The position numbers and the translations under genes were made by a program. From the NCBI RefSeq assembly GCF_964340395.1, contig NC_135563.1, positions 19,075,651 to 19,139,650 on the forward strand: a DNA stretch of 64,000 nt, read 5' to 3'. Below, one piece after another: positions 23,929 to 63,124 of the stretch (position 1 is its first letter; each line of letters starts with the position of its first letter). Source of the stretch: Glandiceps talaboti. Lineage: Eukaryota; Hemichordata; Enteropneusta; Spengelidae. The notes under the pieces were generated by a model. That model had not been told where the DNA came from, searched no databases, and was given only the letters and a program-made list of their open reading frames with translations.

Positions 23929-24054
23929 CTACAGCGTGTATAATCCGGGTGCTGAAAGAATGATGGCACACGAACCTGCAAGGCCTCCAATGGCAAAAAT
24001 GATCAAAAATAAACGATCGAAAACACTTGCAACGTATCGCCACTCTTCTTTCAC
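23929..24054 (-). CDS. nAChR gene 1, last exon (M4)
   Basis: Acceptor TTATTATAG|GTG, phase 0, 41 residues and TAG. Starts VKEEWRYVASVFDRLFL, the conserved pre-M4/M4 sequence, and ends with a short extracellular tail. Confidence 0.93.
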   Translation of the reverse strand: MKEEWRYVASVFDRLFLIIFAIGGLAGSCAIILSAPGLYTL

Positions 24055-27000
24055 CTATAATAAACAGAAAAAATGGACTAAGGATAAAAATTCAAAAATG
24101 AAAAAAGAAAATGGAAAATTTACACTTATCGATTGAGGACATGTATTGTGGCTATATAGAATATTGATAGTTCAATTTCATCACGTGTCACCAACCACCT
24201 GTTGCCAGATCATTAGTCAGTCTGAAGAAGCGTCTGGGTTAGGATGTGAAATCTGTTTATACGCAAAAAACCATCAAGTCCAGTAGCTTAATGATTAAAG
24301 TGTAAATACTCATCCACTATATATAAAGAATATTGTTATTTCTCATTATCATCTACATTACGAAATAATATCGAACACAATTTGCAATTGCAAGCGAAAA
24401 ATCAGAACGAGGCTAATGAAAAGAGTGTAGTTGGACGGTGGCGATATGATGGATAATGAATCCTACCAATCAGATAGAGGGAACGAGATTGGAGATGGTC
24501 ATATCGACACGTACAGTGAAATTATAAAATACATAAAACGATGTTGATATCGAGTCACTATAGCAACACAAATACCAAAGTCAAGTTCTCTTACCTCATT
24601 CTCTTTATCTCTGTCTTTCATTCTGTTACTGATAAAGCTCACATCATTGATTATGGATTTTTCAAACTCTGACCAATAACGTCTCTCTCCTTGCTGTTCC
24701 TCGTTGTCTCCTTGTCCCTCTATTGTCTCCTCTAGTTCAATATTATCCACTGTGGATGATTGCGAAAGTGTTGTTTCCATGGTGACATCACCAGCAGGCA
24801 TATATTGAGGGCCATTGTCTTTAGCTGTACCGACACTGCCTTGTTTTCGGGGACATTTACGAGCAACTGTAGCTATAACTGCATGGTGTCCGCGACATGA
24901 ACGTCCCCTTACGCAACGGTAACCATCATTTCGAGTGATATTTAATCTTGGCCTAGTCTTTCTTAGTTTACAGTAAGGTCCCTCCCACTCTTTCATACAC
25001 AATTTCCTTGGAAGAGAATACAGAAGGGTTTCTCTCATCCCGATTGGCACTGGTGACAGTTTATTAGGATGGTATTTGATATGCAGTACGACAACTGACA
25101 ATACCAACGACAACGATACCATGCCAATGTTAAATAACAAGTATCGACCAATCAATGGTGTAGTTTCTGACGTCGCTGGCATCAGATCTGCAACCAGCAA
25201 ACTTAACAAAGTCAGTGCTAGTAATACTGACATGCTGAGTGTAATCTTCTCACCGGAATCCGGGGGTAAACAATACACCAGAACAGTTATTATCGCGAAA
25301 AGTACACACGGTACCAAAATATTGATGCAGTAATACAGGGGTCGTCGACGAAGCGTGATTGTGTAAATAACCACACTGTATTGTTCTCCTGGGCAGCACT
25401 CCAGTTCTTCGTTAATAGAATGAACTTTACTACCCTTAAGCTCCCACTCAACGTTTTCCAGGAATTTTTCTTTGACAACAATGTCGTGCATCGGCTCCAA
25501 GTAGACTTGCTCGTTGGTGTATTCCCATGGACCAAACGATAACTGACACATCTGTTCATCGAATGGGAAATATTCTATGTTGATATGACACTGACTGTTT
25601 AAAGCCGCAGGCGGTGTAATCCACACAGTACCATCGAACTCAACAGTAGCAAATTTGGAGACGGGAAGATCAGAACTACCGTAAACACTGAGAAAATAAG
25701 AACATTTATCGTCAAATTTGTAGCACTCTGGTATGATCTAGTGTTCTCTCCTTTCACTAGTATTAAAACAAAACAAAAAGTCAAAGAAAGGGCCGCTAAA
25801 GTTCAGAAAAAACTACAATGTTATTGTGATAAATAGTCTAAAATGTCCTGTGAAATTAAATATATTAGGTAGCTTGGACTTCTTAAACTGACTTTATCAG
25901 CTTTTTGACTGTACGTGTAAATACTTACTATAAAACTATAATTAATCTATCTTTAGACACATTCATCATATCTGTAGAACATAGTAATAATAATAAGGTC
26001 TTGTACCACGACCAAGGGTTAGTATTACTACTTTTGATTTTTTAAAAATGTTTTCAAACAATGGGGGGGGGGGGGGTTAGACATCATGATGGTACATTCC
26101 GTACAATTAGTAGGAATGGTTGGACAGTGGGTAGTATTGACAGAACAAAAGCTATTGGTCTTGTTTCACAGACAACACAACTGTTGAATGGCAGTGTATA
26201 CTGTTGGTAATGGCAGTGTATTGTCGGTATGATGTCATACATACGCTTATTAGTTGCAGCAAGTCTGCGACACATACAAAACTGTTTCAGATGAATACGT
26301 AATTATACCATTTTCGTCTAGTGCACTCATGTACGCTGTTTATTTGTGAGTCGATTCAAATAAAGGAACAATAAGGATTTAGCAATTACGTGAACCTCAG
26401 ACAACCAACTCAATTTTATCTGAGCGTGAACTAAACATTTTTTCAATAGTAGAATGATTTCGGTTACTCATACAAATTAAACACGAAACCTCGACAATTA
26501 ATGTTCTCAAAGTACAGTTACAGGAGATTGTATTTCACTCTAGGGATTGGCGACAGTACAGAAGATTCCATTTCACACTAGGGAACGGCGACTGCACAGT
26601 TACCGCTATGTAACAGTGGTTATTACACTACGTGTATTCCACCTGTTGATGAAATTCAACAATGTGGCATATATATCATGACCTGTTTCCTATTCCTTTT
26701 GAAAACAATATCCCAGAAATGTTCCACAGTTGTAAATCTTGCTCACTTTGAAATGAACGAATACGACTCACAGCAATGAACTTGTTAGCAACTAGTGGCC
26801 TACATGTCGTACCAGATTGTATTTTAGGAAAGAAATATCTGACCGTCGTGTAAATACTAGCAAGACAGTAAAATTAACCAACACACATTACAATGTAAAA
26901 TTAATACTTTTAGAGCTTTCGACTGCAAACTATCAATCGCTCAATTTGAGTGCCAAATTTGACAATAATGGGTACACTACCTGTTGTCTAGTACCATATC

Positions 27001-27418
27001 GGGGTACCATAACCATACTGCCGGGATGATGATGTATTCTATATCGTCATATGCCACTGGATCCCAGGAAAGACGATAGTCTGACCAAATCTGAAAAAAA
27101 ATTCAATGATCAAAAAATGAGCCACAGTTATTAATTTTGTAAATGTGTTGAGAACACTCTAGGTTCTAATTAATTTTCAGTGTTACGCTGTTTACTTAAT
27201 CCTACACCAGGGGCCACATTTTGTACTTACTCTCCTTTTGGTCTCTGTTACTGCTATTTGCTCCACAAGGATTGGAAAGCGGATTTCACGGACCGTTTTG
27301 AAGTGACCGTTAATTTGATAATGATTCCATAATGTGATAGATATTACAACTTCAACAGAATTAACGTGTCCTTACTTTACTTGGCCTTCTGATCTTCTGC
27401 GAAGTAACCAACTTGTGA

Positions 27419-27543: not shown

Positions 27544-29414
27544 GGTGGTGGTGGTGGTGGTGGTGGTGGTGGTGGTGATGGTGATGGTGATGGTGGTGTG
27601 TGGGGTTATATCAGAAGGAAGAGAAGCGATGGGAAAGGATTCTACGACATCCTGTCAACACAATAGGTATCGCTCTTGAAGAGAGTTGAACGTTTGTTAT
27701 CAAAGCTGTAAAGATCTACAGCTCGTAGCGTAGTTGATGAAATCTCGAGGTTAGTGCAAGCACAGAAAGAGATGTTTTGGGGCGATACTTACTTGGTTTA
27801 GCCATACATGTGTTGAAATAGACTGAGCCTTTTCATTCTGGAATTTGAAATAAACGAATAACATCTCTATCAACGGGTCTTTTTAGGGGAGAATCTGAGT
27901 CATAAAAACGTAACAACAACAATAATATAATAATTGTTGAATAAAACCATTTACTATTCATATAATCATAGGGTGCAATGGAAGGAATGTCATCTATGTA
28001 AATCTCGTGCAATGGTACAGAGCTACGTCAGATTAAATAATATTTCTAGCTACTTCACTTATAACTAGTTGTCCATATCTCTGTCGCCACCATATGTCAT
28101 ATGGTTCCTTTCGGTGCAAAACATTCACTAAATTTTGCAAGTAAAGCTATATTATTCAAAAGTTCTTGTACTTTCGGTGAACGACTGCATTCATACAAGA
28201 CCTAGCATAGATGACCAATGTCTATTAAATTTTGTTCTATTGTCACACGACACTTGCAGTTTGAATAAATGCTACCAACAGAAATCTATTTATGTGTACC
28301 CCTCAAGGCGGATTTATAAGAACCAGTTGGTGTACCCACTTCTATTCATTATCTGCATGAAAACCTCATAGACACCGAATTTGTACTCACAACATCTAGA
28401 AGCTGTGTTATGGAGAGTCCAAACTGTAATACCACGCTATCATTGTGCCGTTGAACGGGACGGACGTATTTATTGTACTTTCGAAAGAGTTCGGTATGCA
28501 ATCTTCCTTCCGTTTCCGATCCGAGGACACCTGATGGAGGGAAGAAAATATTAGTAGGTAGTGAAGTGAAAGGGTGGGTTGAAGAAATCGACTTTAAGAT
28601 AACGGTAGGTATCACATTGACAATGAATACAAACGATCAAACACACAAATGCAGTGGTTTAGGTGCTGAAGACTTCATTTGTTGCGTCAAATATGTCAAC
28701 ATCAACACACGAAAAGCAATGTTTCACATCAAATTCGTATGTTATATCATTCAATGGAAAAATAGATTCAGTATTAGGTCAAATATATTCGTTGTATCAC
28801 AGACTTTTCTGGGAAGGGGGGGGGGTGTTCACCACGATGCTTTAATGTTTAATATGTACCTGGGAAGTTCGAACATAGAACCATCGACAGTATCTCAACC
28901 AAAACAGTAGAATTGTCTACAAGAAAATTTAAAATGCACATAGTTTGGCATACACCCTTCCCCCCGAAGGCATATGACGAATACCATATGTTATACACAG
29001 GCAGTAATTACAGTACTGTATGCACTGACCAAGTATGTTTATCGACACTTGTTAACGTGACCTGTTTATCATGTACATGTACGTCGAAATGCTACTTTAA
29101 TGGATAGGATAATTAAAATTTCGACTACGTGGTACAATGGCGGTTATGTTAAACTGTTTGGTTTATTTTGGCAGTGGTAAATTTTCGATCAAATTGATAC
29201 TATATTTATAAGAAGTAAACAACGACAGAAATAAAAACAAATACGAACAATTACGTGTGCATTAGTACTTGGACAAATATCGTACATCATCGTCATTATG
29301 ATTACTAGATTTTGTTTCTCATCCATGTTACACGTTGCACTACGCCATCTGTCAATGTATACAGCAGTGATCAGCAGCAGGATTCGTGATATATGTAAAT
29401 GTATAGCTAAAGAG

Positions 29415-38500: not shown

Positions 38501-38968
38501 TATACGATAAAATGAGCACCTAGCCTCCAAAAAACTCAGAAGAATTTAGCGTATATGACAAAATTAGCACCTGTCATTTTATTAATAACCAGACCCTGTA
38601 TTGTAACCGAGATATAATATACTCCCACTGTTTTGATTGAGATCCAAACACATTAGGTATATTCTCCACTTTACTGCTCAAACCATATGATGCTATCGTG
38701 TGTCGAGAAACACCTGTATATGTAATAGTGGCGTTGGTTTCAAGATTCAGTCTGTTCAACCGGTATATACTAGTGCTACTTCGCTATGACGAACACCTCT
38801 AGGAGAATATCAACTCCTTCTGATGAATTTGAATGAAATGAATGATTCAAGCGATTTTATGCTTATAACATAATGATCAAAGAGACTGTACAATGTCTAC
38901 TTACCGTACACGAATGCCATTAACATTACAACGACACACATCAGTTGTTTCTTCAAAGGTAATGCCAT
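23929..38968 (-). CDS. alpha-type nicotinic acetylcholine receptor subunit, gene 1 (six exons)
   Basis: Exons 38905-38968, 28391-28530, 27793-27837, 26981-27090, 24595-25687 and 23929-24054 join to 1,578 nt, 525 residues, with all phases closing. A signal peptide (about 1-22) precedes an extracellular domain with the Cys-loop C153-C167 (13 residues between) and vicinal C217-C218, the mark of alpha subunits. M1 (about 237-260), M2 (about 266-288, starting GEK, Leu276 at 9'), M3 (about 300-325) and M4 (about 499-518) follow, with a ~160-residue Arg/Cys-containing cytoplasmic loop. GEK without a preceding Pro-Ala insertion indicates a cation channel. Loop D Trp80, loop B Trp174 and loop C Tyr223 are kept, but the loop A Tyr is Asp118 and the first loop C Tyr is Leu215. 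It should be a plasma-membrane pentameric ligand-gated channel subunit; the ligand may not be acetylcholine. Paralog of the gene at 51906. Confidence 0.94.
24595..25687 (-). CDS. nAChR gene 1, exon 5 (Cys-loop to cytoplasmic loop)
   Basis: 1,093 nt; acceptor TTTTCTCAG|T, donor GAG|GTAAGA. Encodes the rest of the ligand-binding domain, M1-M3 and nearly all of the M3-M4 loop (residues 120-484) in one large exon, an arrangement also known from several vertebrate neuronal subunit genes. Confidence 0.95.
26063..26076. repeat. G homopolymer, intron 4 of nAChR gene 1
   Basis: Fourteen consecutive G on the plus strand. Confidence 0.85.
26525..26602 (+). repeat. two-copy tandem repeat (about 38-bp unit)
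   Basis: Two adjacent imperfect copies sharing AGATT, ATTTCAC, CTAGGGA, GGCGAC and CACAG/TACAG in order. Lies in intron 4 of nAChR gene 1. Confidence 0.6.
26981..27090 (-). CDS. nAChR gene 1, exon 4 (110 nt)
   Basis: Acceptor TTTTTTCAG|ATT, donor AACAG|GTAGTG. Encodes IWSDYRLSW to PDMVLDN (residues 84-119 plus two bases); 110 nt is the conserved exon size. Contains the altered loop A (Asp118). Confidence 0.95.
27420..27600. repeat. compound (TG)n/(TCTG)n/(GGT)n microsatellite
   Basis: TG dinucleotides, then TCTG, then GGT and GAT-GGT units, within intron 3 of nAChR gene 1. The Val/Cys-rich frames through it are artefacts. Confidence 0.95.
27793..27837 (-). CDS. nAChR gene 1, exon 3 (45 nt)
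   Basis: Acceptor TTCCAG|AAT, donor CAA|GTAAGT. Fifteen residues, NEKAQ...VWLNQ, including the loop D Trp80. The 45-nt length is the conserved size of this exon in nAChR genes. Confidence 0.94.
28391..28530 (-). CDS. nAChR gene 1, exon 2
   Basis: 140 nt. Acceptor CCATCAG|GT, donor GTT|GTGAGT. Encodes residues 22-68, with the YNKYVRPV and [12 protein letters not shown] blocks typical of the nAChR N-terminal helix and first strand. Confidence 0.95.
29417..29645. repeat. compound (GA)n/(TG)n/(GACA)n microsatellite
   Basis: GA for about 70 bp, TG for about 20 bp, then GACA and imperfect derivatives. Confidence 0.95.
35341..35812 (+). mobile_element. tRNA-derived SINE
   Basis: The head has an RNA polymerase III A box (TAGCGGAGTGG, 35350-35360) and B box (GGTTCGAATCC, 35394-35404) about 34 bp apart, as in a tRNA. 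A GC-richer body follows, then a 7-bp hairpin (35759-35777) and an A-rich AACTAAATAAATAG end. CCCTTTAAAAC just before the element (35330-35340) and CCCTTTAGAAC near its end (35794-35804) could be an imperfect target duplication, in which case the element ends there. It is not a functional tRNA, because no complete cloverleaf or CCA stem closes. Family not assigned. Lies antisense within intron 1 of nAChR gene 1. Confidence 0.8.
36597..37300. repeat. degenerate long-unit tandem array
   Basis: At least three diverged units, anchored on GGTACAGA-like blocks at 36641, 36889, 37099 and 37290 (spacings 248, 210 and 191). Each unit carries in order a TACAGACGATGG-like block, a short CTCCATA/GTACAG block, CTATTTTTACACC-like, ATCCACAAATCA-like, TTATTTTTATGG-like, AAATCAGGTAT-like and AAATATTACAAAAAT-like segments. 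It lies in intron 1 of nAChR gene 1. Confidence 0.75.
37729..37745. repeat. C17 homopolymer
   Basis: Seventeen consecutive C on the plus strand, about 1.2 kb inside nAChR gene 1 from its start codon. Confidence 0.9.
38905..38968 (-). CDS. nAChR gene 1, exon 1 (signal peptide)
   Basis: ATG at 38968 down to donor G|GTAAGT. Encodes 21 residues, basic then strongly hydrophobic, plus one base of Gly22. The phase-1 end matches the acceptor of exon 2 ten kilobases away. Context AAG-ATG-G is favourable. Confidence 0.85.
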
Positions 38969-40191
38969 CTTCACCGTTCCAAATGTTAGATAGACCTAAG
39001 CACGGACGTGTTTGAAACTACCATCGAGCCAACTGTGAATATCGCTCCTGTATCGCTTATTAAAAACCACCGGATCTAACACTCGGCCAATACACCATGA
39101 AGTAAGAGTGACCTCTCTGAAATATTGATATCGATGAAGACTAGAATTCCGGTGACTGGGTCGTTAGAAGTTTTACGACGTGTTAGATATCATATCTGGA
39201 GTGTCTTCGCGAGCTCGTCTTCACGGGTCATTTGTGAAAGATACCCTGCTATTCTTTTAGTCTTAGAAGATTTGCATATTCAATAGTGCGCTGTTCAAGT
39301 GCCTCGGGGTGAAGATGACAATGGGTATGACCGTGCAGTAACATACTATACCGGGGGAAAATCTAGACTTGTGTAGTTTTAGCACCCCTGGCAGTGCTAA
39401 TATCAGTGTGTGACGACGCGTTCGCAATTTTCTTACGATGGCGGAGTATCGAGTATGAGCATCAGTGTATGTATTCCGCACTTTACGAGGAGCGCTTTTC
39501 CTAACCGCAATGCTGGCAACCGTAAGAAATCGAATGCAGTAATGGATAATACAATCATATGATCAATGCTAATACTCTAACCTATTTATTTACACAATTT
39601 TGGCATTTGTGACTAAAACAGTTAGGAAACCCGTGTGTCGTGCACAATCATACTATCGATTTGTATAGAAAACAAAATTTAGTTTGATTTCATAAATTCA
39701 ATTTTGTACATTGACACCGTGTATCAAAGCTGGATGTAGCTTACACATGGATTCCAGCCAACTTATGTGCGAATAATTTTTTTTAAATATTCAAAACTTG
39801 AGAGAGAAAAAAGGAGCTGAAACATGTCTGGATATTTCTGGTATAAAGTATATAAGTGTTGTCTTATTTATATATCTTCTATTAGCCTGCAGCTATTCTT
39901 GATCTCACAGTTGCTGCATATTTATGTCGCTTAAATTGTCCCTAATGAAATACAAAATATGTAGTTCTAGCCATTATCATGTCTTATATTTCCGATAGAA
40001 TTCGAAGTGTGTGAAAATGGAGAGGATAGTTTCAGCTCTGTAGTCTGTAATCATAATCATAACCATATAATCGACGAAGTCTAGCAAAACTTCTTGCGCA
40101 CGTGTATTGATTGTTCTGGAAAATGACATACAGACTTTGAAATAAATAAGGACCTCTCAAATTTCGCCTTGATGGCGACGTTATTCCAGTC

Positions 40192-40208
40192 GGGGGGGGG
40201 GGGGGGGG
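40192..40208. repeat. G17 homopolymer
   Basis: Seventeen consecutive G on the plus strand, about 1.2 kb upstream of the nAChR gene 1 start codon. Confidence 0.9.
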
Positions 40209-41505
40209 CGGAGTTTAGGTAGTTCATCTTCTAACTCATGATTAAGCTTTTACATTTTCTTAACGCGAATATGTGTCCAATAGTAAATGAAAGTGTTGTA
40301 ATATATTGATGGTTTTGTAACTGCTATCAAATGTTGTCTATGAGTAACTTCACCGTTGTAACTGCCCAATTACAGAAATAAAGCCATACATTGTCAACAG
40401 ATCTTACAAACTAATAACGCAAAGCTTATATCTCTAAATTGTAGGGTTTCGATATTTTCGCGACTCGAGAAACAAAACCTATAAAGTTCTTCCGTAACGT
40501 TTAAAGTATGTGTCTCCAAGATATAAAACTATTCCTAAAAGATACAGGAACCGACACCTTAATTTTAATTCAAACTGGCTGCCAAAGTAAAACAGAATAA
40601 ACTGGGAATATTTAGAACTTGTCCTTTATCTTGGAATAAAAAGGGGAACATTTTGAATAGTAATATGCTAGCTATTTTTACAGAATTTGCCACAGTTTTT
40701 GATGGTACATGGTCTGACTAAATTTTCTCGATCAGAAGGAAAACAGTCCTTGTCATTGCATCCATTCTTTCGTAAAAAAGTATATAATTATCTCTCACTA
40801 ACGTCTTCAGCATTGTCAAAATTCCATTAAGACAATGCTTACACCACTAAACCGCTTTGTTCAAGAAACAAGCAACAGAGTGGTAGAATACCCATCTGTA
40901 GTGTTGTGACGAGAACAAACGCTAATCAGGTTGAAATCTGTGAGCTTTGTATAATAATAGGTGCTTTAAGAAATTGTCTGGAATTAGTATACGCCCAATA
41001 ACAGAAAAACAAAACAAAGGTAACGCTAGACCCTTATTTTTTTTGCATCTTCTGTTCTTAAATTCACTAGCTTTGTCGCTGAGACTTTGGCATACCAACG
41101 TTTTAATTGACCGTCGTGTATGTGTTCACCCAGGCAAAATATAATCGGTAAATTTAGTCAATTGAAATACAGTAATTCCGACTGAATATTTTAAAATACA
41201 ACCTTTCATTACGCATTTCATGGTCAATTAACATAGTCAAGTCATTTGATTGATAAGAAATCGTTGTTTGAGAGACTTTGACAGTTTGAAATTGAAAGTG
41301 TAGAGTTAAAATACACACTAGCTTTTGAATGAAACGAATTACTCTGTAACAAAGTTGCAATAAACAAGGTAAAGATTAAACTGTTCAATGCAATAAATAC
41401 TAACTGAATGATTGTCTTAAAGTGTGTGTTGGTGCATAGTAAACTAGTTATGCTAAGAAATGAAGTAAATCAACCAACGAAGCAACTCAAATGGAACAGT
41501 TCGGT

Positions 41506-41563
41506 GTTATTGTTGTTGTTATTGTTGTTGTTGTTGTTATTATTGTTGTTGTTGTTGTTGTTG
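41506..41563. repeat. (GTT)n microsatellite
   Basis: TTG/TTA trinucleotide array; the poly-Leu frame through it is an artefact. Confidence 0.9.
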
Positions 41564-42169
41564 GTCGTTGTTCGTCGTCACGTGGCGGTTTGGTGTAATT
41601 TCTGCTCTTCTAAGAGAACTACATATAGAAAACATCTATTGGACAATTCGGTAAAGATTGGGGTAGCATCCCAACTTTCTTACCGTTGCTGAGTGATTGT
41701 AATTAGTTATTCATAAGTAAACATTACACAAGGACTTCCCAAACAAGTTGATACATGTTGGGCCTTCGGTAATCCGAACACAGACGAGTGGATAAGCATT
41801 ACAGAAGCAGAAACGTTTTTGCGACTTTTCTAGCTGATGCGCACGATATTTAGAAGTGTGAGCCTAGTTACCGGGACCATTGTTCCTATGCCAAAAGAAA
41901 CACAATAAGCTAAAAAGATCTGAAACATGTCGTCTAGATCGACAACATTCTTATTACTATTGCTACATTTCATCTTCAAGCTCAACAAAGAAAATCATAC
42001 TAAAATTGCTACATTTGGTCTGACTCGAAAAAAATTCTTCCCACGACTAGTACGTTCCATCTTCTAGCTCGACAAGAATCTTCTTAGCATTGCGCCATGT
42101 TTTTTCTGTGTTACCAGAATATTAACAGATTGTTGCACTGAGAAAAACTTGGCATCGGATCACACAAAG

Positions 42170-42421
42170 AATAGGGAACTAGCAAACCCGCCATGTTGAA
42201 TGTTGCATCATGGGAAATGTGATAATAAATGCTAATCAATTAGTATTATGAACAATATCGTTATATTGTTTTTAACCACAAATGATCAATTCATGGTCAC
42301 CCTGGCCATTGTGGGAGGTTTATTTTATCGGTAGCTCCTGATTAGGTAATATGATAACCTCAGATAATCCCATAGTCCTTTGCGTCTGAGCATGCTCAGT
42401 CTGGATTGCAAGTTCCCTATT
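42170..42421 (+). mobile_element. 252-bp MITE, copy 1
   Basis: Ends in inverted repeats AATAGGGAACTAGCAA and TTGCAAGTTCCCTATT (one mismatch). About 85 percent identical by eye to 50642-50894 over its whole length, with flanks that differ, which defines a mobile unit. Contains the palindrome CTGAGCATGCTCAG. No coding capacity. Superfamily not assigned. Confidence 0.82.
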
Positions 42422-43490: not shown

Positions 43491-44060
43491 CATATACTAT
43501 GTGTGTGTTGCAAGTGTAGCTTTTAGCTTTAATGAGTCATATGCATATAGTTAAGAATTTAGCAATATCTTATGGTTGTACTCTTCGTTTACAGCGCACT
43601 CATATTTTACTTCAAATTGTTGAGTTGAACAGATTGGTGATGATTTATAGATATAATATGAAATTGCAATATGGCATAATATTTATCCAAAATTCCAATA
43701 AATGCCTAGTTACGAAGACTCTGAGGGCACACTCAAGCACGTCTTTCATGCGATATTGATGACATCACGCCTCTAAATATATTCTTCGCTAATACGCAAT
43801 ATGAAAAGCAGTCTATTTCGTAAAATCAAATAGTATCTAGTTTTACCACTAATGACGTGTTTCCCACAATGCACTGTATCATGAGTTTGAAAAGCTCTAA
43901 AAGCTATATTAAGGGTTAATGTTGAGACAATTCGCACATAATACAACAAATAAGTGAATAACCTTTAATTTATAAAGCAAATAGGAATCCTACATTAAAG
44001 ACTAGTCATATTACTAGATATACAATTAATGGAACGTGTTAAAACTGATCAAGCATTTAT

Positions 44061-44062
<2 letters not shown>

Positions 44063-44101
<39 letters not shown>
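44063..44101. repeat. (TA)n microsatellite
   Basis: Nearly pure TA dinucleotides; a short AAT array follows at about 44197-44213. Confidence 0.95.
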
Positions 44102-44104
<3 letters not shown>

Positions 44105-45296
44105 GTACTCAAATACCTTTTAGAGCGATCTTTGCCCTTGATTGTCAATCCAAACCTTGATGACACCTCATTAACCCTTCTGTGATTAACAGTTCTGAAT
44201 AATAATAATAATAATCAAAGTAACAACACATACAATTATTCATTAACAGTAATTCGATAAATCAGTTTTTGTTTGTCAACTTTCTTGACTTTTCGGATAT
44301 TAGCTAATTTTGCAAAGTCAACAAAACTCAATGAGAACAAATCCCATGTATCAAGCTTAAGTACAAGTTGACAGTTTACTCGCGTATCACAGCAGATGTT
44401 AAGTTTGAATGTGACAGTGACAGTCACGACGTAGTACTGTATGTTCCACTTCATAGATTCCGTAAACTCTAGCAGGAATTTGTTGTGTTGTGTATAGGTA
44501 AGTTTTGTCTCTTCTCACGATTGTAAATATTTCAGACTTTTCATTTTCTGCAGCATTTAAAAAGAATGAAAACTAATGATTGTCAATGATAGTTCTGGTG
44601 TCATTCTGTACACTACTTTATTTTTAATATATAAAAGAGTATTTACTCCAACAGTTAAAAACCAGCCTGTTCTTTGGGAAATGGATCAGAAAAAAATACG
44701 CATCGATGTCAGAATTTTGTTACAGCTGCATTTGTTGGGTTTGGCTTACATTAATTATAATAGGCGATCGATCTAATATTTTCGTCGGAAATTCTGATAT
44801 TTCATCGACGAATTCTTAGTTCAATTCCTGCGATATGAAATGTCATGTGAAAATGCTTGTCAGTAAGCTTACTTACGTCACAAAAGATCACAAAATTAAG
44901 AATTATTATCCAATTCCTGGCATTTTTTGAGTATGATTCGAATTATTACAATCTAATATCTCAATTTCCGTTATGCTTTTAGGCGTCCCATAGTTACGAG
45001 TACGTTGCGAGTAATTTTATCAAAATGTCTCTGTAGGGCTTGATTATTGTGTAAATAATATATAGAGTTAGTTTAAATCGGAATGCCCTAGTTACTCCAA
45101 ACTAATCATTATATATATTTGAGCAGTTGGATATCTAATTTGAGTTTATTTGAAGCAACTGTCTGACAACATCACTTATAGTACGTGACATGATGTTGAT
45201 TGTTGCCACGTTCCTAACTTCCACTACGTGCCTCTAAGTGCAACCCCACCCCCTCATGTATTACTGTGTGTACACGACTTTACATGCATGTTTACA

Positions 45297-45725
45297 CACC
45301 CTGGTGTGTTCACAGGTCTGATTTTACCAAGATGTCACGTGTCCGTATAAAATTATGTACTTAAAACACCCATTTGTGATATATTCTTTAAAAAATTCAG
45401 ACCTGTCCGGTATACGTCCTTGTATCGACAGACTTGTTACATGTCTGTGAACACAGACCTGAAATCTGACCAAATGTACACACCCTGTAACAAAACCTGT
45501 ATTCACGTCTCTTGGTACACAAAATATACATGTTCAGTCATGTGACCAGAGCAATTCATAGCGTCAGAAATTAACACATCTGTACATGCCTTTTACCAAG
45601 ACACATGTTACATGTCTCTGAATACAGCTTCGAACAAATCTTATCAAATTTGCAAACCCTGTAACAAACCCTGTTTCACATATTACTCTGTTACAGGGTC
45701 TGCATGGGGCCTGTTACAGGAACGA
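45297..45725. repeat. cluster of related short repeats
   Basis: Repeated blocks TTACATGTCT, CCCTGTAACAAA, ACCAAGA, GAACACAG/GAATACAG and CACAGGTCTG-like recur in direct and inverted orientation. The clearest pair is about 45432-45510 with about 45604-45685. No gene. It may be a decayed foldback element or minisatellite. Confidence 0.55.
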
Positions 45726-46238
45726 CTTTGAATCTGCTGGAGGATTTCTATTCTGAGTGTTTAATAGTGCAATCTATTCTTTATCAATTACACTATTTTT
45801 TTCAGACCATATACTTACTTACATAATTTACATACAAACGGTGCATAACTAACCGTTTTCTCGAAATGCAATTTGTTCAAAGCAAAATACTTTGAACTCG
45901 AATATACAACCGCAACGCTACAACAACATTGCAAAGATAGATATGTATACTGCATGTCAAAATTTGAATTTTTAAGTAAAGAAAAAATAATCACACTGGC
46001 CTCTTTCGTACTGAACTCTTTACACAGTTTCATCCAAAGGGATTTATGTACATCTGTCACATTGTCTATTCATGACGCCTGTCACTACTCTACGGCGACT
46101 TAAAATTATCAATAAAATATGAGGTTTGGACAGTGACGTATTTTATTATGTATAATCACACTTCTCGGTTACATACCTTATGTATTGGATTATAATAATT
46201 TTACTTTTCAATAATTGTCTCTTGGGAAACAACTTGAG

Positions 46239-46342
46239 TGTATGTATGTATGTATGTATGTATGTATGTATGTATGTACGTACGTACGTATGTATGTATG
46301 TATGTATGTATGTATGTATGTATGTATGTATGTATGTATGTA

Positions 46343-46376
<34 letters not shown>

Positions 46377-46495
46377 CGTACGTACGTACGTATGTATGTA
46401 TGTATGTATGTATGTATGTATGTATGTATACATGTATGTATGTATGTATATGTATGTATGTATGTATGGATGGATGGATGTATGTATGTATGTAT
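46239..46495. repeat. compound (ATGT)n microsatellite with ACGT interruptions
   Basis: ATGT units broken by two ACGT blocks (about 46276-46289 and 46376-46391), a TG block and a GGAT block. Frames through it are artefacts. Confidence 0.95.
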
Positions 46496-49400
46496 ACAAG
46501 AAAAATACTAATTGTAATGTAATGACTACTAAGTAGCCTCGCGATACAAATTATTACATTTATTTCACATTGTATTCCATGAATATTTCGACGGTGAACT
46601 CATTCGATTTTGACAGACGTTGAGTTAAATATAACACAATTATTACAGGCATATTCAGCTGTGTTTACAATTGTCTGCAAGGAAGTTCTAATCAATGTTG
46701 TCATTTTCCCCCTTTCATCTTGATAAGTAATCTGTGAATGAAGTTGAATCTTATATTAGGTATATCTATATATATTGTTAAAGGTGGATCATAATCTGAA
46801 TTCGTGTTGATGTAAGTCTGATTGCATTAGCTACTATCATCCAAATGATTATTGGCAAATAATCTGCTTTTTTCCTTCAGTAACCAATTGTACACTATAA
46901 TATCGCCATGGATTCCCACCTGTCTGTTAACGTGGCGAAGGGAGTATATACTTGAATTAAACTACTAAACAAAAATAATTTTATTTGCACACGTCAATAG
47001 AATAAAACATGACTTGAGACACCCAAAATCAAGAATTCCCAACTCATAGTAGGATAGCTCTGTTTTAGGATATTTTAATTATATAGAGATGAAATATAGG
47101 CTTACAGCCTTAAACTGACATGTTAAGTCCCATGTATTTGAATATGATATCTTCCTTTAAGTTCGGAAGGGACTATTTCTAATAATTCATGTACGAATTT
47201 GAAAAACAGGGTAAAGAAAAGAAATTTGAAACAATGGAACTATTTATCGTTCAGCACAGTCCATCGCAAAGTAGTAAGGGATGTGATGTTCGACACAGAC
47301 TTGAGTCGAGTTTTGGTTGAAAAATATCCGAAAGGACCGGAGAGAGAAATGTACCTGTTTACGATGATGACAAAAGGACGTTTGAGAAAGGATATACACA
47401 AATATGGGTGCACTACATACGGTCTTGGAAACATTTGGTATGGTCTTGACTTTTGTAATATGGAGTGATTTTGGATAAGTCTATCTAAAACACCTATCAA
47501 TTTGGGTAGAGTTGTACAAAGGGTATCGAGATTAATGTTCACACACTGTAGAGATTTCTAAGATGTGCATGGCAAACCTTCATTGGTTGTTTTACAAGGT
47601 TTGAACTCTCTAAAATTGTTGTTTAGAGTTTGTTGAAACACCTGCTCTTCTATGTTAGGCTTTACTTCTTTCAATTTGCCTTAAGTTACCAAATCGTAGA
47701 AAAAATTAGGAAGAAATAAAAATCATAATTTAAAGTAATGAAATGTTAATCTCGATATTCATTTTTAGTCATGTATAATTTAACAATTTACTGACATGAG
47801 CAAAACACAAAATAGATGAGATGAGGTGTTATTCAGTAAACCACGAATACCCCGAGGGATACATTGTTTGTTGACACGAATCAATGATATCCATAATTAC
47901 ACGTATACAATTGAGTTCGAGCCAAAATACTGTAACCAACCGAGAATGAAATTTCCTGCTCTGAAACCGAAAACTTAATTTGCCGGCGGTAAACGATTCG
48001 GTTGACATGCTATCTATGTATCTTCTATAAATGTATGTGTAGAGAAACCTACACAACGAATGAGTCATTTTGCCAAAGTATAAGAAGATTATCAACATGA
48101 TATTAACTTTGAAGCGATGTCGTTCGTTCTTAAGTTAGTTATCAGTCACAGTGAATACATTAGGTTCTAGTTTGGTACCAATATTGCGTATTTGCATATG
48201 TAACATCAATAGTCAAAACAGCTTCAAAATTGTGATCCTTTGATGTCGTATCAAGGTCAAAGTTACGGCCAGTGAGTCAAAGACATCTCAACGTGAGTAG
48301 ATATTCATTTTCGATTATACTTTTATTGTATATTTTTAGCGAAGTGCATTTCATTTGTTTTTTATTAATAGAATTATGAAATTATTAAGTTCAGTGTTTC
48401 ATAAAAATGCAATTTCCTCAATTCCCCAAGTGTTACACGAACTACTTTTTAGACGTTTTTCGGCATTTATCAACAAAGGAAGTCGGAAATAAGGACGTGG
48501 TATTCCCTTCGTTTAAAACCCAACGTTGCGCCTCAATTATGTGAACATATCTTGACAGCAATACAACTGGGGTTATTCAAGATTGGAGAACAATCACAGA
48601 ATCAAATTATATTTCACTTAACTTCATTATTGGGTTCAATAAATAAAATTGAAGTCGACGTACGTGTAATTATTCCGAGAACGCTTGATTGAATCTGGTC
48701 ACTATTACCGTAGAAGCATGCCGGTCTTGACACATTGATACACCGAATACATTGCATTACACGACCGCATAGCATTTACAGCCAGTATTGGATAACATTA
48801 TGTGGGGGAAATTGTCTTATGCGTACGTCAGAATACAGTCACCAAGGATTTGAGGTATGATAACAAATATTAATTTCCATATTGGAAATATCATTGTTGC
48901 TACAATTACGTCGAGCATTAACACATACTTGATTCATTGTGAGGCACATGACCATATTTTGCGATGAGATTGCACAAATGTTTGTTTGGGATTCTGCGAT
49001 GTTGATGTTTTTGCTAGTCAGCAGGTTATATACATGTAGTTATATAGGTATGTCGAGTATGTAATGTTAACTATCCGAGTCACGTCATTAAAATATCAAT
49101 ATGAGGCTTCGTACATCTGTTGCATGATCTACATTTGCCATCGATTAATATTTCGTCGAATGTATCATGTAATGGAGTGTGACAATTTCAACTTCATCTG
49201 TAAAATAACCGTTTATTCTCGTCACGCTTTAGTCGTATATTTTGATTAAAGTATCAGTTTTTGATCTTTGCGCCGACTTCGACAGTAGTGAGGTTGAGAA
49301 ATATAAGCGTTTCAATTATTATTTATTACCTACATTTAACTATAGATACTAAAGTTGTTCACATTAACAAAGATTAACAATAAAACTGATTTTCATGGCA

Positions 49401-50641
49401 ACAAAAAGAAAGAAATTTCTTGCCATTCCTGTCAAGATTCTGGCAAACATAACAGTTTCATCACCTAGTGTAAAATTAATTATTTTCTGCGCTTCCCTTT
49501 AACCGCATATTTGTCTTCCATTTTTATTTCGAAGTAATTTTTACCTAATTCCAAACCGTTCATGGAAGCTCATATTTGTCTTCTTCTTACCATCATGTTT
49601 GGGGGAATTACTGAAGCCTGTAGATCTTCGCAATAAATCAAACTAACAAGTGACGATTCATTCGACCCAAAAAGACTAACATTTAGCAGAAAATAAAGAC
49701 AAAACATGTACCATTAAATTTTAAAATCAAATGTTCCTTTAATGGGCATCGATTACTCATATGTTATAGTTCAAAATAAATATAAGATTCCGTTCAACAT
49801 CTTTGTTCAATGTTAAGTAAATAAACAGTTGAAAATCCTTTAAAATCCTGCGGTCATTTGATGGGTCATTTTACGAGGTACAAATAGGAGTATCAGATGT
49901 CGTCAACACTAAACGATTTGTAATAAATCAAGTAGCCTATTTTCTTTGAAGGCAATAATGCTGACACTCTTTAATACTGGATTTAAAAATCCTCTTATAA
50001 AGCTACACATTATTTTCACATGTAAGCGGAATCCATATACATTTATGACCAAATTCTGACATTGTTTATACGCACGTCTACTCGCAAGTAAAGATAGGCC
50101 ATTGAATGTACTCATGACTGTTTGAGGCACACACTATCTGGGCATATATGAAACTTGTACAATTCATACAGTGTACTCGTGTGTCGTTTAACTGTACTAC
50201 ACATAGAATTACTTTACTCTTAAAAAACTGAAGCATATTGAATTGATCTCTTCCAGTCATTACAACATACGCTTAAGTTATTATATCCTATCTTTGTCAA
50301 GATTATAAGGCCTTTCATTTAAAGTAACCATTTGGATCAGGATTTGGTATTTATTATGGAGTTTCCGACAATTCATAAAACAATTTTATTATGGCTTCCG
50401 AACTCAATACATTGTGAAAGATTAAGAAATGTGTAAAGTGTTTGTTCATTGTACGCATAAGTGAGATATACACAGACTTGTTCAATTTGTTTCACCTTGA
50501 TTTTTCGAGTAGGAAACCATGCTGATGATGATAAAATTGTCTTATAAATTAAAAATCCAAAATAAATTTCAAATCCTCCATCATGGCCACTTAATTTTTC
50601 GATATTGAGGGCATTACATATTTGTTAACACTACGTAAACA

Positions 50642-50894
50642 AATAGCGAACTTGCAAACCCGCCATGTTGAATGTTGCATCATGGGAAATGTGATAATAA
50701 ATACTAATAAATTGGTATTGTAAACAATACTTTTACATTGTTTGCAACCACGAATGGTCAATTCATAGTTTTCCCTGACTTGTGGGAGGTTTTTTTTTTA
50801 TCGGTAGCTCCAGATTAGGTATTACGATAACCACAGATAATCCCATAGTCCGTTGCGTCTGAGCATGCTCAGTCTGGATGGCAAGTTCCCTATT
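50642..50894 (+). mobile_element. 252-bp MITE, copy 2
   Basis: Same orientation and ends as 42170-42421 (left end AATAGCGAACTTGCAA, right end TTGCAAGTTCCCTATT), with the 14-bp palindrome CTGAGCATGCTCAG intact. Lies about 1 kb upstream of nAChR gene 2. Confidence 0.82.
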
Positions 50895-51494
50895 GCTAGG
50901 CAGCATTATGTTTTCCGAAGTAAAGACACATTATTCAATCAACAAATTAAAGACAAGAACTTGGACAGTCATCATATGAAATAATAATAACCTTATATAA
51001 CCCTGGCTTGTGTTCATGTGTTAACGTGGCGTGTTGAAAGTATTTTTGTTACTACACTGAATCAACTCATTTTACACGGTACACACTTTCACTGATAAGA
51101 TCTGCTTTTAGAATGGATATCTATGACGACAGATCTAAGAGCCTTTTATAACTGAATACCTCTCATTAATTTCATTTAATCAAATATATATAAAAACACC
51201 GTAACAGGATTCATTAGGCATAAATAAGCTATTATTTATTATTTGAAGCTTAGTAGAGTAAGTAGAGGTTAACTTGTATAGTGGTAGATGTTGATAAATC
51301 GTTATACTCTCAAATTTATATTCTATGAATTGTGTAATTAGAGGAGCCAACGTTTTTATTTAAGGGCGAATCTATTATACGAAATAAACATGGTGTTCGA
51401 TGCAACGAGTGTGAGGTTTATTTCATCTCAACGTCGTACTGGGAACTCCATAAAAAGGAAACTTCGAATCGAAACACTCGTCTTCTTTCATTTT

Positions 51495-51498
<4 letters not shown>

Positions 51499-51584
<86 letters not shown>
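51499..51584. repeat. (TA)n microsatellite
   Basis: About 85 bp of pure TA, roughly 320 bp upstream of the nAChR gene 2 start codon. Confidence 0.95.
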
Positions 51585-51588
<4 letters not shown>

Positions 51589-51905
51589 GTATGACTGGAT
51601 CACATCACTGCAATGTGTATGTGGATTGAATGCAGGGATCGTATTTCAAAATAAATGAGCACGTGTGTTAGATCGTTGAAATTTGTACCTTAGTATGTGT
51701 ATGAATTATGACAGATTGGACTACCAGATGTTACATGTTTAGACTCCGGCTTAGGTCTTTACGTCATTTCTATAAATAACATAGACATTACCATATGCGA
51801 AAAAAACCCACTAATTTTGTTCTTTTTTACAGACTAATCATTGTAAGCTTACATTGGAACTTCTCCATTTATCCTGTATATGACCAGTGTTATTCTTGAG
51901 CGAAA

Positions 51906-51954
51906 ATGGAATTAATCAGTAGCTGGCTAATTCTTCTTCTCATCTGCTCAATGG
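51906..51954 (+). CDS. nAChR gene 2, exon 1 (signal peptide)
   Basis: ATG and 15 further codons with a Leu/Ile-rich core, plus one base; donor G|GTAAGT. Same phase-1 end as exon 1 of gene 1. Confidence 0.85.
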
Positions 51955-56900: not shown

Positions 56901-58623
56901 ACTTTGAGAAATCCTAATCTTGTAACCACTTGTTTCATTTGTAGAACTGTTAGTACACTGCTGTGTTTTAATATCATTCCCTCTTCAAATTCATGACGAG
57001 GTTAAGAAAAACAACATTTTGAAAAAAAAAACCCTGACTTTAAAAAGTACCAAATGTGAGCGAAAAACTTACAAGTAATACAGTCAAACAAACTTTGAAA
57101 TAATTTTTTTTTTATTAATTACCGTTACTGGCTGTGTATCATGATTTGGTCCTGCTATATCAAATGACAGCATTAGTTACATACTGTAAACTTGATACGG
57201 AAAGCTGACATTAGGTGTCCTTGAAACTCAGAAATCGTGAACTAAAACTATCAACGTCAAAGTTAGGATGCTTTGTAAATACCACTGTAATTATTTTCTG
57301 ATTTGCACAACAAGTTCATTCTTCATGTCTGACCGGGCGCACATGCATCGGCCGTCTATATGGCCATGCCAGTGATCACGCATTGATTCAGTCAGTGCCC
57401 AACATTCACATATGTGTCACTGTCAACACCATGCAACATGATCCCCTAACACAGCTTTTTCGGAATCAAAATACACATGTACTCATTTTGTTTCCATTAA
57501 TCTAACCCATCAACAAATGAAAATCACAACCTGTCCCATAAATTTGGTTTACTAAGGCTTCTGAGCTGTGGCAGATAGATGTTCCGATTTCCGGTAGCAA
57601 GTTCAGTGTTTCGTACACGTCAGTGAGTAGGTCAGAGGTCGCGACAGTGATGGTAGACAAAACATGTGACGAGAGACGTCCATTTCGACGTCTCATCTAC
57701 TCCCTCTAATGTTTCAATTTGTAGATTAAACTTATCAAAGTTGATCTTTTTGTGTCATTTTTTATGTTACCAATAGAACTGTGCGTTGTCACTGTATCTT
57801 AAATGAGTTACAACAAAATTTTCCCTCACGGAGTCAGTATACTTCTTGTGGGATTGACGTCAGGGCCTGGCCCTAGACTTAGATAATTTTGATGTTTTGC
57901 CGTAAAATGAATGTGCCAAAGCGGCGCAAGGTGGGAAAATTATTGCGTCATTTGTAATTTTAGGGGGCCAATGTTGCAAGGTCGTGGCCTCGGCAGAACA
58001 TACACTGGTCTAAGACGCCATGAGGAACGTTTGATGTTCATTCGAACCTTACAGTCTTGCTGTGTTGAACTCAAGGGTCGAGTCGGTCGGAAATAAAAAA
58101 AAACGTTGTTTTTTTTCTGATGTCGGAGCTAGAAATTTAGGGTCGGTCGGGAGATGAGAAACAGAAAAATAAAAAGGGCCGCCCTTATAGGTAAAAGCAG
58201 CCTTGAAATCGTACTAAATTTGCTAAGTATGACGTTAAATCGTTTTTGACGGTTGAGAAATTAATTTGGCCAAAACCCCCCCACCCCCAAACTAAAGCAA
58301 TTAAGTTTTTTTGTAAACATCGATCTTTTGACGTCGCCCCTAAGTTCATGACAAAACCTTGCTGTTTCCTTGCCATCGACAGTATAACATCTAACATTCA
58401 TACGATAAATAACAACTTGTGTTTAGATATCTCAAAGTGTAAACTATGTTGTTGTTTTTTTTCAGATTGCCTGGGATCAGAAATAGAGCACTCTTTACAG
58501 ACTGAGTTATTTGCCACAGGTTATAATAAACACGTTCGTCCTGTCAAAGTCCCCAATGAAACACTAATATTACAATTCGGCTTATCAATTACGCAATTAC
58601 TCGATGTGGTAAGTAAACCGTTG

Positions 58624-60729: not shown

Positions 60730-60792
<63 letters not shown>

Positions 60793-62063: not shown

Positions 62064-62106
<43 letters not shown>

Positions 62107-63124
62107 GGTCTATCTGCCTGTCTGTCTGTCTGTCTGTTGACATGTTTACCTGTTTAATTTTCAACATGTTGATGGAAGTCACTACCTAACCATCTGGCAC
62201 TATATTTGATGTGTTTGTAATTTGATTCCAAAGTTAATTACTTCCTAATTAAAATATTTCATTGAGTATACAATACAATGTATGAGCGGACCTTATGTGT
62301 TATAGTGATTATTAAAATATGTGAATCCAAGTATGAAATTATTGATATGTTATTCTCTGTTGTCACGTCAAATCGAGTCCATGTTCTTTAAATCGTGCAG
62401 TATTCTCGCATTAAACCACGTGACGTTAAACAACTGGGAATATACACAAGCATACATATATAATTGAAAGATATTATGAGGAGAGTCATTGAAATTCGGG
62501 TACCAAGAACATGTTTTGTCACTGTGTGTCCAAGTAATTCTTCCACAACACTACAAATACTAGTAATTTCCCCTCTCCTGAACTTTTCCAACAGCACGAG
62601 AAAAACCAAATTGTCACAACGAGCTGTTGGGCTGAGCAGGTATGTCGTTTGTAGGTATATAACAGACCTCTGAGGATTAACGAAAACAAGGCATTGGCCT
62701 TCTGTGCAATAAACCTACTGTATATGTCTAAAGATCATGTATAGATGCTTGAATGGATGAAGTGAGAGACTCGTAATGTTTACATTATAACAGGAAAAAC
62801 GTTCTCTTTTTTCCCTCAAGTACTAGATGTCTTACTCTTGAGAATTTTGTCATCTAGATTTGTTCATCTAGGTTGCTTTGGTCATGTTCGTTGTTTTTAC
62901 TTAAATATATCTCATAGCTAATATCATACTATTCATTTGAGCGTAGTTGTCAATTATCCAAAATTAATTTTTCTAACATTATTACCCTGTGACATGTTTC
63001 TACGATTTCTCTAGATATGGACGGATTATCGTCTGCAGTGGAATCCCGCCAATTATAGTGGTATGGATTACATTGTTATACCCACCGAATGGGTTTGGAA
63101 ACCAGACATCGTCCTTGAGAATAG
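51906..63124 (+). CDS. nicotinic acetylcholine receptor subunit, gene 2 (5' part, four exons visible)
   Basis: Exons 51906-51954, 58466-58608, 62595-62639 and 63015-63124 join in frame to 115 residues plus two bases, and the gene runs out of the window. A signal peptide (about 1-16) is followed by [13 protein letters not shown] and [12 protein letters not shown] blocks shared with gene 1, then HEKNQ...W76 (loop D Trp), IWTDYRLQW and WKPDIVLEN. The loop A Tyr is replaced by Glu114. Exon phases, and the 45-nt and 110-nt exons, match gene 1 exactly. The Cys-loop, loop C and membrane segments lie beyond base 64000, so alpha or non-alpha type and pore selectivity cannot be judged. The start codon context (AAAATGG) is favourable. 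Confidence 0.92.
53767..53974. repeat. (GACA)n microsatellite
   Basis: CACAGA/GACA units with several GAGA interruptions. Frames through it are artefacts. Confidence 0.95.
54949..55126. repeat. (CATA)n microsatellite with ACGT interruption
   Basis: ACAT units with a central GCAT/ACGT block (about 55020-55049). It is the inverted counterpart of the array at 46239-46495. Confidence 0.95.
56547..56578. other. 10-bp hairpin, CTCAGACCAC arm (copy 2)
   Basis: CTCAGACCAC (56547-56556) pairs with GTGGTCTTAG (56569-56578) with one mismatch. Same arms as at 22122-22152. Confidence 0.45.
58466..58608 (+). CDS. nAChR gene 2, exon 2
   Basis: 143 nt, one codon longer than in gene 1. Acceptor TTTTTTTTCAG|AT, donor GTG|GTAAGT. 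Ends with the same [12 protein letters not shown] block as gene 1. A TCTG microsatellite begins 18 bp after the donor. Confidence 0.95.
58627..58905. repeat. (TCTG)n/(TGAC)n microsatellite
   Basis: About 85 bp of pure TCTG, about 32 bp of TGAC, then imperfect TCTG with TACC interruptions. Confidence 0.95.
60730..60964. repeat. compound (CA)n/(CATC)n/(CATA)n microsatellite
   Basis: CA with occasional CG, then CATC/CACC, CGCA and finally CATA units for about 70 bp. Confidence 0.95.
61870..61932. repeat. (ACAT)n microsatellite
   Basis: About 15 pure ACAT units. Confidence 0.95.
61977..62137. repeat. compound (TG)n/(TGCA)n/(TCTG)n microsatellite
   Basis: TG and GC units, three TGCA units, then TCTG with a four-unit TCCG block. 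Confidence 0.95.
62595..62639 (+). CDS. nAChR gene 2, exon 3 (45 nt)
   Basis: Acceptor TTTTCCAACAG|CAC, donor CAG|GTATGT. Encodes HEKNQ...CWAEQ with the loop D Trp76. Confidence 0.93.
63015..63124 (+). CDS. nAChR gene 2, exon 4 (110 nt)
   Basis: Acceptor GATTTCTCTAG|ATA, donor AATAG|GTAGAC. Encodes IWTDYRLQW to WKPDIVLEN; loop A Tyr replaced by Glu. Confidence 0.95.

What the first reader, a model, noticed from the sequence alone, without database searches (positions are those of the whole stretch)
23929..63124. Head-to-head pair of divergent nAChR subunit genes with acidic residues replacing the loop A tyrosine
Seen: both genes have the nAChR WxPDxxLxN region, but the residue that is normally Tyr (Tyr93 in Torpedo alpha1) is Asp118 in gene 1 and Glu114 in gene 2. 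Known: this Tyr is one of the five aromatic-box residues that bind acetylcholine, and cephalopod chemotactile receptors are nAChR derivatives with reworked binding sites. Inference: this pair may belong to a lineage-specific subunit group with altered or lost acetylcholine binding, perhaps co-assembling and co-regulated from the shared 12.9-kb interval.
Basis: partly seen in the sequence, partly recalled or inferred. Interest (0 to 1): 0.75.

Follow-up and report, generated by a model that had tools for sequence, protein, structure and literature searches.

The report
Acorn-worm receptors with acid-lined pockets
Two neighbouring acorn-worm genes belong to a hemichordate branch of nicotinic acetylcholine receptor subunits in which the aromatic pocket that normally grips acetylcholine has been rebuilt with acidic residues, so these channels probably answer to something else or play a supporting role.

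Summary
The window is from the acorn worm Glandiceps talaboti (hemichordate, not cephalopod). Gene 1 (23929-38968, minus) is P0001, 525 aa; gene 2 (51906-63124 and beyond, plus) is P0007, 492 aa. Asp118 and Glu114 sit at the Torpedo Tyr93 position; no exon restoring Tyr was found in the window. An acidic residue here is not unique: vertebrate delta subunits carry Glu. The context is unusual. Both genes fall in a clade of 28 sampled proteins, all hemichordate (support 92/96); its nearest relatives keep Tyr93 and Tyr190. The 19 acidic members all keep Trp149 and all lack Tyr190. Net charge of loops A, B and C averages -6.1, against -0.2 in 38 canonical ambulacrarian rows, without overlap; three sampled delta rows average 0.0. 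The pore filter stays cationic. Best reading: cation channels whose principal site became an acid-lined pocket for a different cationic ligand; a modulatory, non-binding subunit is nearly as likely. Function, co-assembly and co-regulation are untested. New variant of a known kind.

The parts
38905..38968 (-). Gene 1 (P0001) exon 1: start codon and signal peptide
   Evidence: match to P0001 residues 1-21 followed by a GTAAGT donor
28391..28530 (-). Gene 1 exon 2 (start of the ligand-binding domain)
   Evidence: AG/GT splice sites, identical to P0001
27793..27837 (-). Gene 1 exon 3 (45 bp, loop D with Trp55 equivalent, THVWLNQ)
26981..27090 (-). Gene 1 exon 4 (110 bp); the Asp118 codon (Torpedo Tyr93 position) is 26986-26988
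24595..25687 (-). Gene 1 exon 5: Cys-loop, loops B and C (FGPWEYT; EELECCPGEQYS), TM1-TM3, cytoplasmic loop
23929..24054 (-). Gene 1 exon 6: TM4 and stop
38969..51905 (.). 12.9-kb interval between the two start codons; no convincing other nAChR piece found in it (only chance-level tblastn hits, E above 0.2)
51906..51954 (+). Gene 2 (P0007) exon 1: start codon and signal peptide
   Evidence: match to P0007 residues 1-16 followed by a GTAAGT donor
58466..58608 (+). Gene 2 exon 2
62595..62639 (+). Gene 2 exon 3 (45 bp, loop D, TTSCWAEQ)
63015..63124 (+). Gene 2 exon 4 (110 bp); the Glu114 codon is 63117-63119; the rest of the gene lies beyond the window

Best explanation
Gene 1 and gene 2 are subunits of cation-selective Cys-loop channels of the nAChR kind, in a clade that held only hemichordate proteins here. 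Shown from sequence: Tyr93 is Asp/Glu, Tyr190 is lost, acids stand at 188 and mostly at 191, and an acid next to Trp149 (position 150), already present in the closest Tyr-bearing sisters, is kept; Trp149, an aromatic residue at 198 and Trp55 are retained. Inferred: these changes arose in the ancestor of the clade; the usual acetylcholine grip and the Tyr190-Lys145-Asp200 coupling are gone from this face; the remaining aromatics plus the carboxylates form a pocket for a different positively charged trigger (a protonated amine or polyamine, a basic peptide, a divalent cation or protons), which opens the same kind of cation pore. Ligand, partners and any chemosensory role are inference.
For: Clade of 28 rows, 92/96, with pocket columns left out of the tree; 97 by SH-aLRT in a further quick tree with added nematode rows. 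In 19 acidic rows: D/E at 93 19/19 (this defined the group), E/D at 150 19/19, E/D at 188 19/19, E/D at 191 16/19, Trp149 19/19, Trp55 18/19 (1 gap), Tyr17/Phe2 at 198, vicinal Cys 14/19, Tyr190 0/19 (one Phe), Lys145 3/19, Asp200 0/19, pore Glu-1' 19/19. Net charge of loops A+B+C -6.1 (range -8 to -3) against -0.2 (-2 to 2) in 38 canonical hemichordate and echinoderm rows; the rest of the extracellular domain hardly differs (-10.6 against -11.6). Of 12 clade-defining columns other than 118, 5 fall in the 30 loop columns of 431 tested (Fisher p = 0.0007). Whole-loop variability relative to the domain is 0.82 (5-95% 0.71-0.91) against 0.74 (0.61-0.86) in canonical rows and 1.06 in a derived subclade of 7. 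Gene 2 has relatives in its own subclade from three genera.
Against: No ligand, expression or current data. The classical box residues other than 93 are much more variable in the acidic group (ratio 0.77) than in canonical rows (0.15), and in another test principal positions were more variable (0.79 against 0.55 bits) and five complementary positions less variable (1.19 against 1.68) than in one sample of 19 canonical rows; both fit loss of binding on this face. 5 of 19 acidic rows have lost the vicinal cysteines, including the Ptychodera relative of gene 2. Two changes are older than the clade: acid at 150 is in 5 of the 11 nearest Tyr-bearing rows and Asp200 is in none of them. One new acid column (294, D/E 18/19) lies outside the pocket loops, near the M2-M3 linker. 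The nine other clade rows average only -2.7 (-6 to 1). The tests treat related sequences as independent.
Confidence: 0.47

Rival explanations
1. Accessory subunits: like vertebrate delta/gamma/epsilon or beta3/alpha5 (roles recalled), they assemble with Tyr-bearing hemichordate alpha subunits, contribute the complementary face (Trp55) and the pore, and bind no agonist on their own (+) face; the acids there are structural.
For: Glu at loop A is the rule in vertebrate delta rows (39 rows); Tyr190 absent in 19/19 acidic rows and the vicinal Cys in 5 of 19; the classical box is relaxed while complementary positions are not; further decay in a derived subclade of 7; canonical alpha subunits exist in the same species.
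Against: Trp149 is kept 19/19, whereas 3 of 3 sampled delta rows have lost it; those delta rows show no gain of loop acids (net 0.0); position 57 on the complementary face, Lys/Arg in 51 of 64 canonical rows, is E/D/N/Q in 18 of 18 ungapped acidic rows, so the changes are not confined to the (+) face.
Confidence: 0.35
2. Still an acetylcholine receptor: Asp/Glu at 93 together with Trp149, the aromatic at 198 and Trp55 is enough to bind the choline group, with lower affinity.
For: Trp149, Tyr/Phe198 and Trp55 are retained. In the muscle receptor Tyr93Phe has essentially no effect on acetylcholine binding energy (PMC11655062, passages).
Against: Tyr190 is lost in 19/19. The same passages describe a large loss of acetylcholine binding energy on Tyr190Ala and a Lys145-Asp200 bridge suggested to matter for activation; Lys145 is kept in 3 of 19 and Asp200 in none.
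Confidence: 0.13
3. Artefact: wrong gene model, pseudogene or assembly error.
For: Gene 2 runs off the window; the database names look automatic.
Against: My splice model is identical to the public protein; splice sites are canonical; frames are open; the acidic residue recurs in Ptychodera and Saccoglossus.
Confidence: 0.02

Closest known systems
Canonical neuronal nAChR alpha subunits (best PDB sequence matches alpha-6 and alpha-4)
   Same: Fold, Cys-loop, Trp149, Trp55, vicinal cysteines, GEK cation filter, four TM helices
   Different: Tyr93 to Asp/Glu, Tyr190 lost, strongly acidic loops A-C
Vertebrate muscle nAChR delta subunit (gamma and epsilon recalled only)
   Same: Glu at the loop A position, Tyr190 absent
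   Different: The delta rows have also lost Trp149 and the vicinal cysteines, lack the loop acids, and lie outside the clade in the tree
Cephalopod chemotactile receptors
   Same: nAChR-derived, lineage-specific, pocket altered (PMC11526382, passages)
   Different: Those are activated by hydrophobic molecules; here the pocket is acidic and the animal is a deuterostome. Their sequences were not in my trees.
Alvinella Alpo4 receptor
   Same: nAChR-like receptor whose natural agonist was not found (PMC10338036, passages)
   Different: Alpo4 keeps aromatic residues in loops A and C and lacks the vicinal cysteines (same passages); the reverse of gene 1
Expanded lophotrochozoan nAChRs (oyster)
   Same: Expansion with many incomplete principal sites: 13 of 33 oyster alpha subunits have them complete (PMC6896357, passages)
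   Different: No acid-lined group is mentioned in the passages that I saw; different phylum

Membership tests
nAChR / Cys-loop receptor subunits | Neur_chan_LBD and Neur_chan_memb domains above cut-off | tested here: met
   (gene 1 both; gene 2 LBD part); P0007 is listed with both domains
nAChR / Cys-loop receptor subunits | Cys-loop C-x13-C with FPFD | tested here: met
   CHINIEYFPFDEQMC in gene 1; CTMDIKYFPFDIQHC in P0007
nAChR / Cys-loop receptor subunits | Cation selectivity signature (GEK, Glu at -1') | tested here: met
   19/19 acidic rows, 28/28 clade rows
nAChR alpha subunit (acetylcholine-binding principal face) | Vicinal cysteines in loop C | tested here: met
   ECCP in P0001 and P0007; for gene 2 this part lies beyond the window
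nAChR alpha subunit (acetylcholine-binding principal face) | Five aromatic box residues Y93, W149, Y190, Y198, W55 | tested here: not met
   Y93 and Y190 absent in both proteins; W149, Y198, W55 present
nAChR alpha subunit (acetylcholine-binding principal face) | Response to acetylcholine | not testable with these tools
   needs electrophysiology
Vertebrate gamma/delta/epsilon-type non-alpha subunits | Common descent with the vertebrate delta clade | tested here: not met
   delta rows group with vertebrate beta rows, outside the hemichordate clade; gamma and epsilon not sampled
Cephalopod chemotactile receptors | Membership of the cephalopod receptor lineage | tested here: inconclusive
   CR sequences were not in the trees; no mollusc row falls in the clade and the species is a hemichordate
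Cephalopod chemotactile receptors | Hydrophobic ligand pocket | tested here: not met
   by sequence only: loops A-C net charge -6 in gene 1 and -5 in P0007

The most novel reading that the evidence does not exclude
Acorn worms evolved their own family of nicotinic-derived ionotropic receptors in which the aromatic acetylcholine box was turned into a carboxylate-lined pocket, making channels gated by polyamines, other protonated amines, basic peptides, divalent cations or protons: a deuterostome counterpart of the cephalopod chemotactile receptors with the opposite chemistry.
Probability: 0.3. Interest if true: 0.8.

Novelty: new variant of a known kind. Interest (0 to 1): 0.55.

Why it matters
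If the acid-lined pocket binds a new trigger, it would be a further case, now in deuterostomes, of nicotinic receptors leaving acetylcholine for another stimulus, with close Tyr-bearing sister subunits in the same animals to compare against. That makes the question of how a neurotransmitter site is turned to another ligand directly testable. If they are accessory subunits instead, they are an independent parallel to vertebrate delta/gamma/epsilon.

Tried and rejected
Cephalopod origin: my first thought from the CTGT repeats, dropped when the spliced protein matched Glandiceps at 100%. Acidic loop A as proof of lost binding: weakened by the vertebrate delta rows. Alternative exon restoring Tyr: none found in the window. 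One giant cluster: the clade members that I could place on contig C16 lie in several small groups (near 8.1, 9.2, 19.1-19.2, 21.9 and 23.7 Mb), not one array; P0151, P0201 and the three on the other contig were not placed. Strong constraint as proof of function: a first test with chosen columns (whose printed heading wrongly says n=9; subsamples were 7) looked equal to canonical rows (0.58 against 0.57), but those columns had been picked partly for conservation. With whole loops the signal is weaker, and with the classical box it goes the other way. Nematode fusion proteins P0222 and P0223 score high against the family profile (P0222 above P0001); checked late, they carry Phe at loop A and lie outside the clade. 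Fold search only confirmed the nAChR fold; whole-chain superposition is poor (TM about 0.4, rmsd about 11 for the top rows), and 97 of 525 model residues are under pLDDT 50.

Row choice: 293 proteins came from three searches (222, 819 and 98 hits, of which 120, 120 and 98 were listed; in the first only the 7997 candidates sharing most words were scored). 105 were picked by hand for the alignment and first tree (53 hemichordate rows: every listed one that I recognised by name except the 312-aa fragment P0061), 59 of these for the careful tree. The tally uses the 221 proteins of the first two searches; the 72 added by the third have 0 D, 2 E (both delta), 31 Y, 16 F, 10 other and 13 gaps. 'Hemichordate-only' holds for these rows, not for all proteins in the database.
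Full report
What is there. The window encodes two head-to-head genes of the nicotinic receptor kind. A six-frame scan finds two WxPDxxLxN motifs. Joining exons at canonical splice sites gives a 503-residue gene 1 protein without its signal peptide. It is identical over its whole length to a public protein of 525 aa, P0001, named 'neuronal acetylcholine receptor subunit alpha-6-like' of Glandiceps talaboti, an enteropneust hemichordate of the family Spengelidae. Gene 2 agrees with P0007 ('beta-3-like', 492 aa) of the same species. The first exons are at 38968 (minus) and 51906 (plus), leaving 12.9 kb between the start codons, and the loop A residues are D118 and E114. In the held assembly the window is contig C16, 19075651-19139650. 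The rest of gene 2 lies beyond the window, probably in a stretch that is withheld.

Is an acidic residue here unusual? Alone, no. Among 221 relatives from two searches the position is Y in 142, E in 43, D in 16, F in 9, other letters in 10 and a gap in 1. Of the 43 Glu rows, 39 are vertebrate delta subunits or look like them (P0099, P0100, P0107, P0109 and P0119 carry no delta name in the table), and 4 are hemichordate (P0007, P0009, P0011, P0052). The 16 Asp rows are all hemichordate. The 72 proteins added by the third search have no Asp and two Glu, both delta. That gamma and epsilon subunits also carry Glu is recalled, not tested.

Where the genes fall. A quick tree of 105 rows and a careful tree of 59 rows, both with pocket columns left out, put gene 1 and gene 2 in one clade of 28 proteins, all hemichordate (13 Glandiceps, 9 Ptychodera, 6 Saccoglossus). 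Support is 92/96 in the careful tree, and in 91% of 200 bootstrap trees it is one side of a branch. A further quick tree with nematode fusion proteins, which score high against the family profile, keeps the clade (SH-aLRT 97) and leaves them outside. Nearest to the clade are hemichordate subunits that keep Tyr93, Tyr190 and the vicinal cysteines (P0010, P0012, P0015, P0017, P0022). Vertebrate delta sits elsewhere, so its Glu is best read as independent. Gene 1 pairs with Ptychodera P0002 (57% identity); gene 2 with Ptychodera P0011 and Saccoglossus P0009 (63% and 56%). The two genes are not each other's closest relatives. In the clade, loop A is D in 16, E in 3, and L2, S2, A2, G1, Q1, Y1 in the other nine. 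A single gain of the acid at the base with later losses is the simplest reading; I did not test it. One more hemichordate Glu row, P0052, lies outside the clade.

The rebuilt site. In the 19 acidic rows Trp149 is kept in 19, Tyr or Phe at 198 in 19, Trp55 in 18 (one gap) and the vicinal cysteines in 14; Tyr190 is absent in 19 (one Phe), Lys145 kept in 3 and Asp200 in none. In 64 canonical rows Tyr190 is present in 64, Lys145 in 59 and Asp200 in 52. Asp200 is also missing in the 11 nearest Tyr-bearing hemichordate rows, and 5 of these share the acid after Trp149, so those two features are older than the clade. Columns conserved in the acidic group but different in canonical rows number 13 including position 118, which was used to choose the group. 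Of the other 12, five (120, 173, 175, 177, 213) lie in the 30 tested columns of loops A, B and C out of 431 (Fisher p = 0.0007). Four of the 13 hold acids: 118, 175 (after Trp149, E/D 19/19), 213 (two before Tyr190, E/D 19/19) and 294 (D/E 18/19), which lies outside the loops near the M2-M3 linker. Position 191 is E/D in 16/19. Net charge of the three loops is -6.1 on average (range -8 to -3) against -0.2 (-2 to 2) in 38 canonical hemichordate and echinoderm rows (which include the 11 sisters, +0.4), -2.7 (-6 to 1) in the nine other clade rows, 0.0 in 3 delta and -1.0 in 3 vertebrate beta rows. The rest of the extracellular domain hardly differs (-10.6 against -11.6). Position 57 on the complementary face, Lys or Arg in 51 of 64 canonical rows, is E, D, N or Q in 18 of 18 ungapped acidic rows. 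Rows are related, so p-values are only indicative.

How it probably works. The pore filter is cationic in 28 of 28 clade rows, so the proteins should still form cation channels. Published muscle-receptor work describes Tyr190 and the Lys145-Asp200 bridge as important for acetylcholine action, and Tyr93Phe as having essentially no effect on binding energy (PMC11655062, passages). The loss of Tyr190 and of the bridge therefore argues more strongly against ordinary acetylcholine gating through this face than the loop A residue does. Two readings remain: a pocket refitted for another cationic trigger, or an accessory subunit. For the first: retained Trp149, charge-conserving D/E exchange, acids on three loops, and whole-loop variability (0.82) nearer to canonical rows (0.74) than to a decayed subclade (1.06). 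For the second: the parallel with delta, the relaxed classical box (0.77 against 0.15), principal positions more variable and complementary positions less variable than in a canonical sample, and loss of the vicinal cysteines in 5 of 19. I prefer the first, narrowly.

Genome context. Downstream of gene 2 on the same strand follow P0042 and two further related genes at about 19.161 and 19.177 Mb, with loop A residues Leu, Tyr and Ala and no vicinal cysteines. Other clade members on C16 are P0006 and P0124 near 9.2 Mb, P0134 near 8.1 Mb, P0131 near 21.9 Mb, and P0127 plus an unlisted relative near 23.7 Mb. The clade thus seems to have stayed on few chromosomes in small groups. Nothing here tests shared regulation across the 12.9 kb.

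Literature. Searches for hemichordate, Saccoglossus, Ptychodera, Glandiceps or acorn worm with acetylcholine receptor or Cys-loop terms (listings only, showing 17 of 17, 20 of 216, 1 of 1, 4 of 4, 10 of 62, 4 of 4 and 15 of 24 papers) listed no title devoted to hemichordate nicotinic receptors; the library lacks most subscription journals. Lophotrochozoan expansions (PMC6896357), octopus receptors (PMC11526382) and Alpo4 (PMC10338036) were seen in passages.

Verdict. The acidic residue is a small part of a larger, consistent rebuilding of the principal site. The function is open.

Noticed in passing
13527-15806 (-): Single-frame TRIM-like gene: RING, B-box, filamin and NHL repeats (Pfam).
   Followed up: partly
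8334-8696 (+): C2H2 zinc-finger exon; it resembles the Glass-type fingers by recall only. Other open frames on the same strand nearby gave no Pfam match.
   Followed up: partly
P0011 (Ptychodera relative of gene 2): Lost the vicinal cysteines (DSDPDEAYS), while the Glandiceps and Saccoglossus proteins keep them.
   Followed up: no
62595-62639 and gene-2-like relatives: A cysteine sits directly before the Trp55 equivalent (SCW) in gene 2 and several relatives; meaning unknown.
   Followed up: no
G000 contigs C1, C8, C9, C13, C14: Many listed PF02931 matches cover only profile positions of about 45-124, often with one or two in-frame stops: decayed copies, or exons of another expanded receptor family.
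   Followed up: no
L032 (C16 near 23.67 Mb): A further acid-clade-like gene with an acidic loop C (DFDDCCPDEAYS), nearest to P0008, P0124 and P0013 and not among the listed proteins.
   Followed up: partly
window, many places: Dense simple repeats (GTCT, CATA and CA/CT types) in introns and between genes.
   Followed up: no
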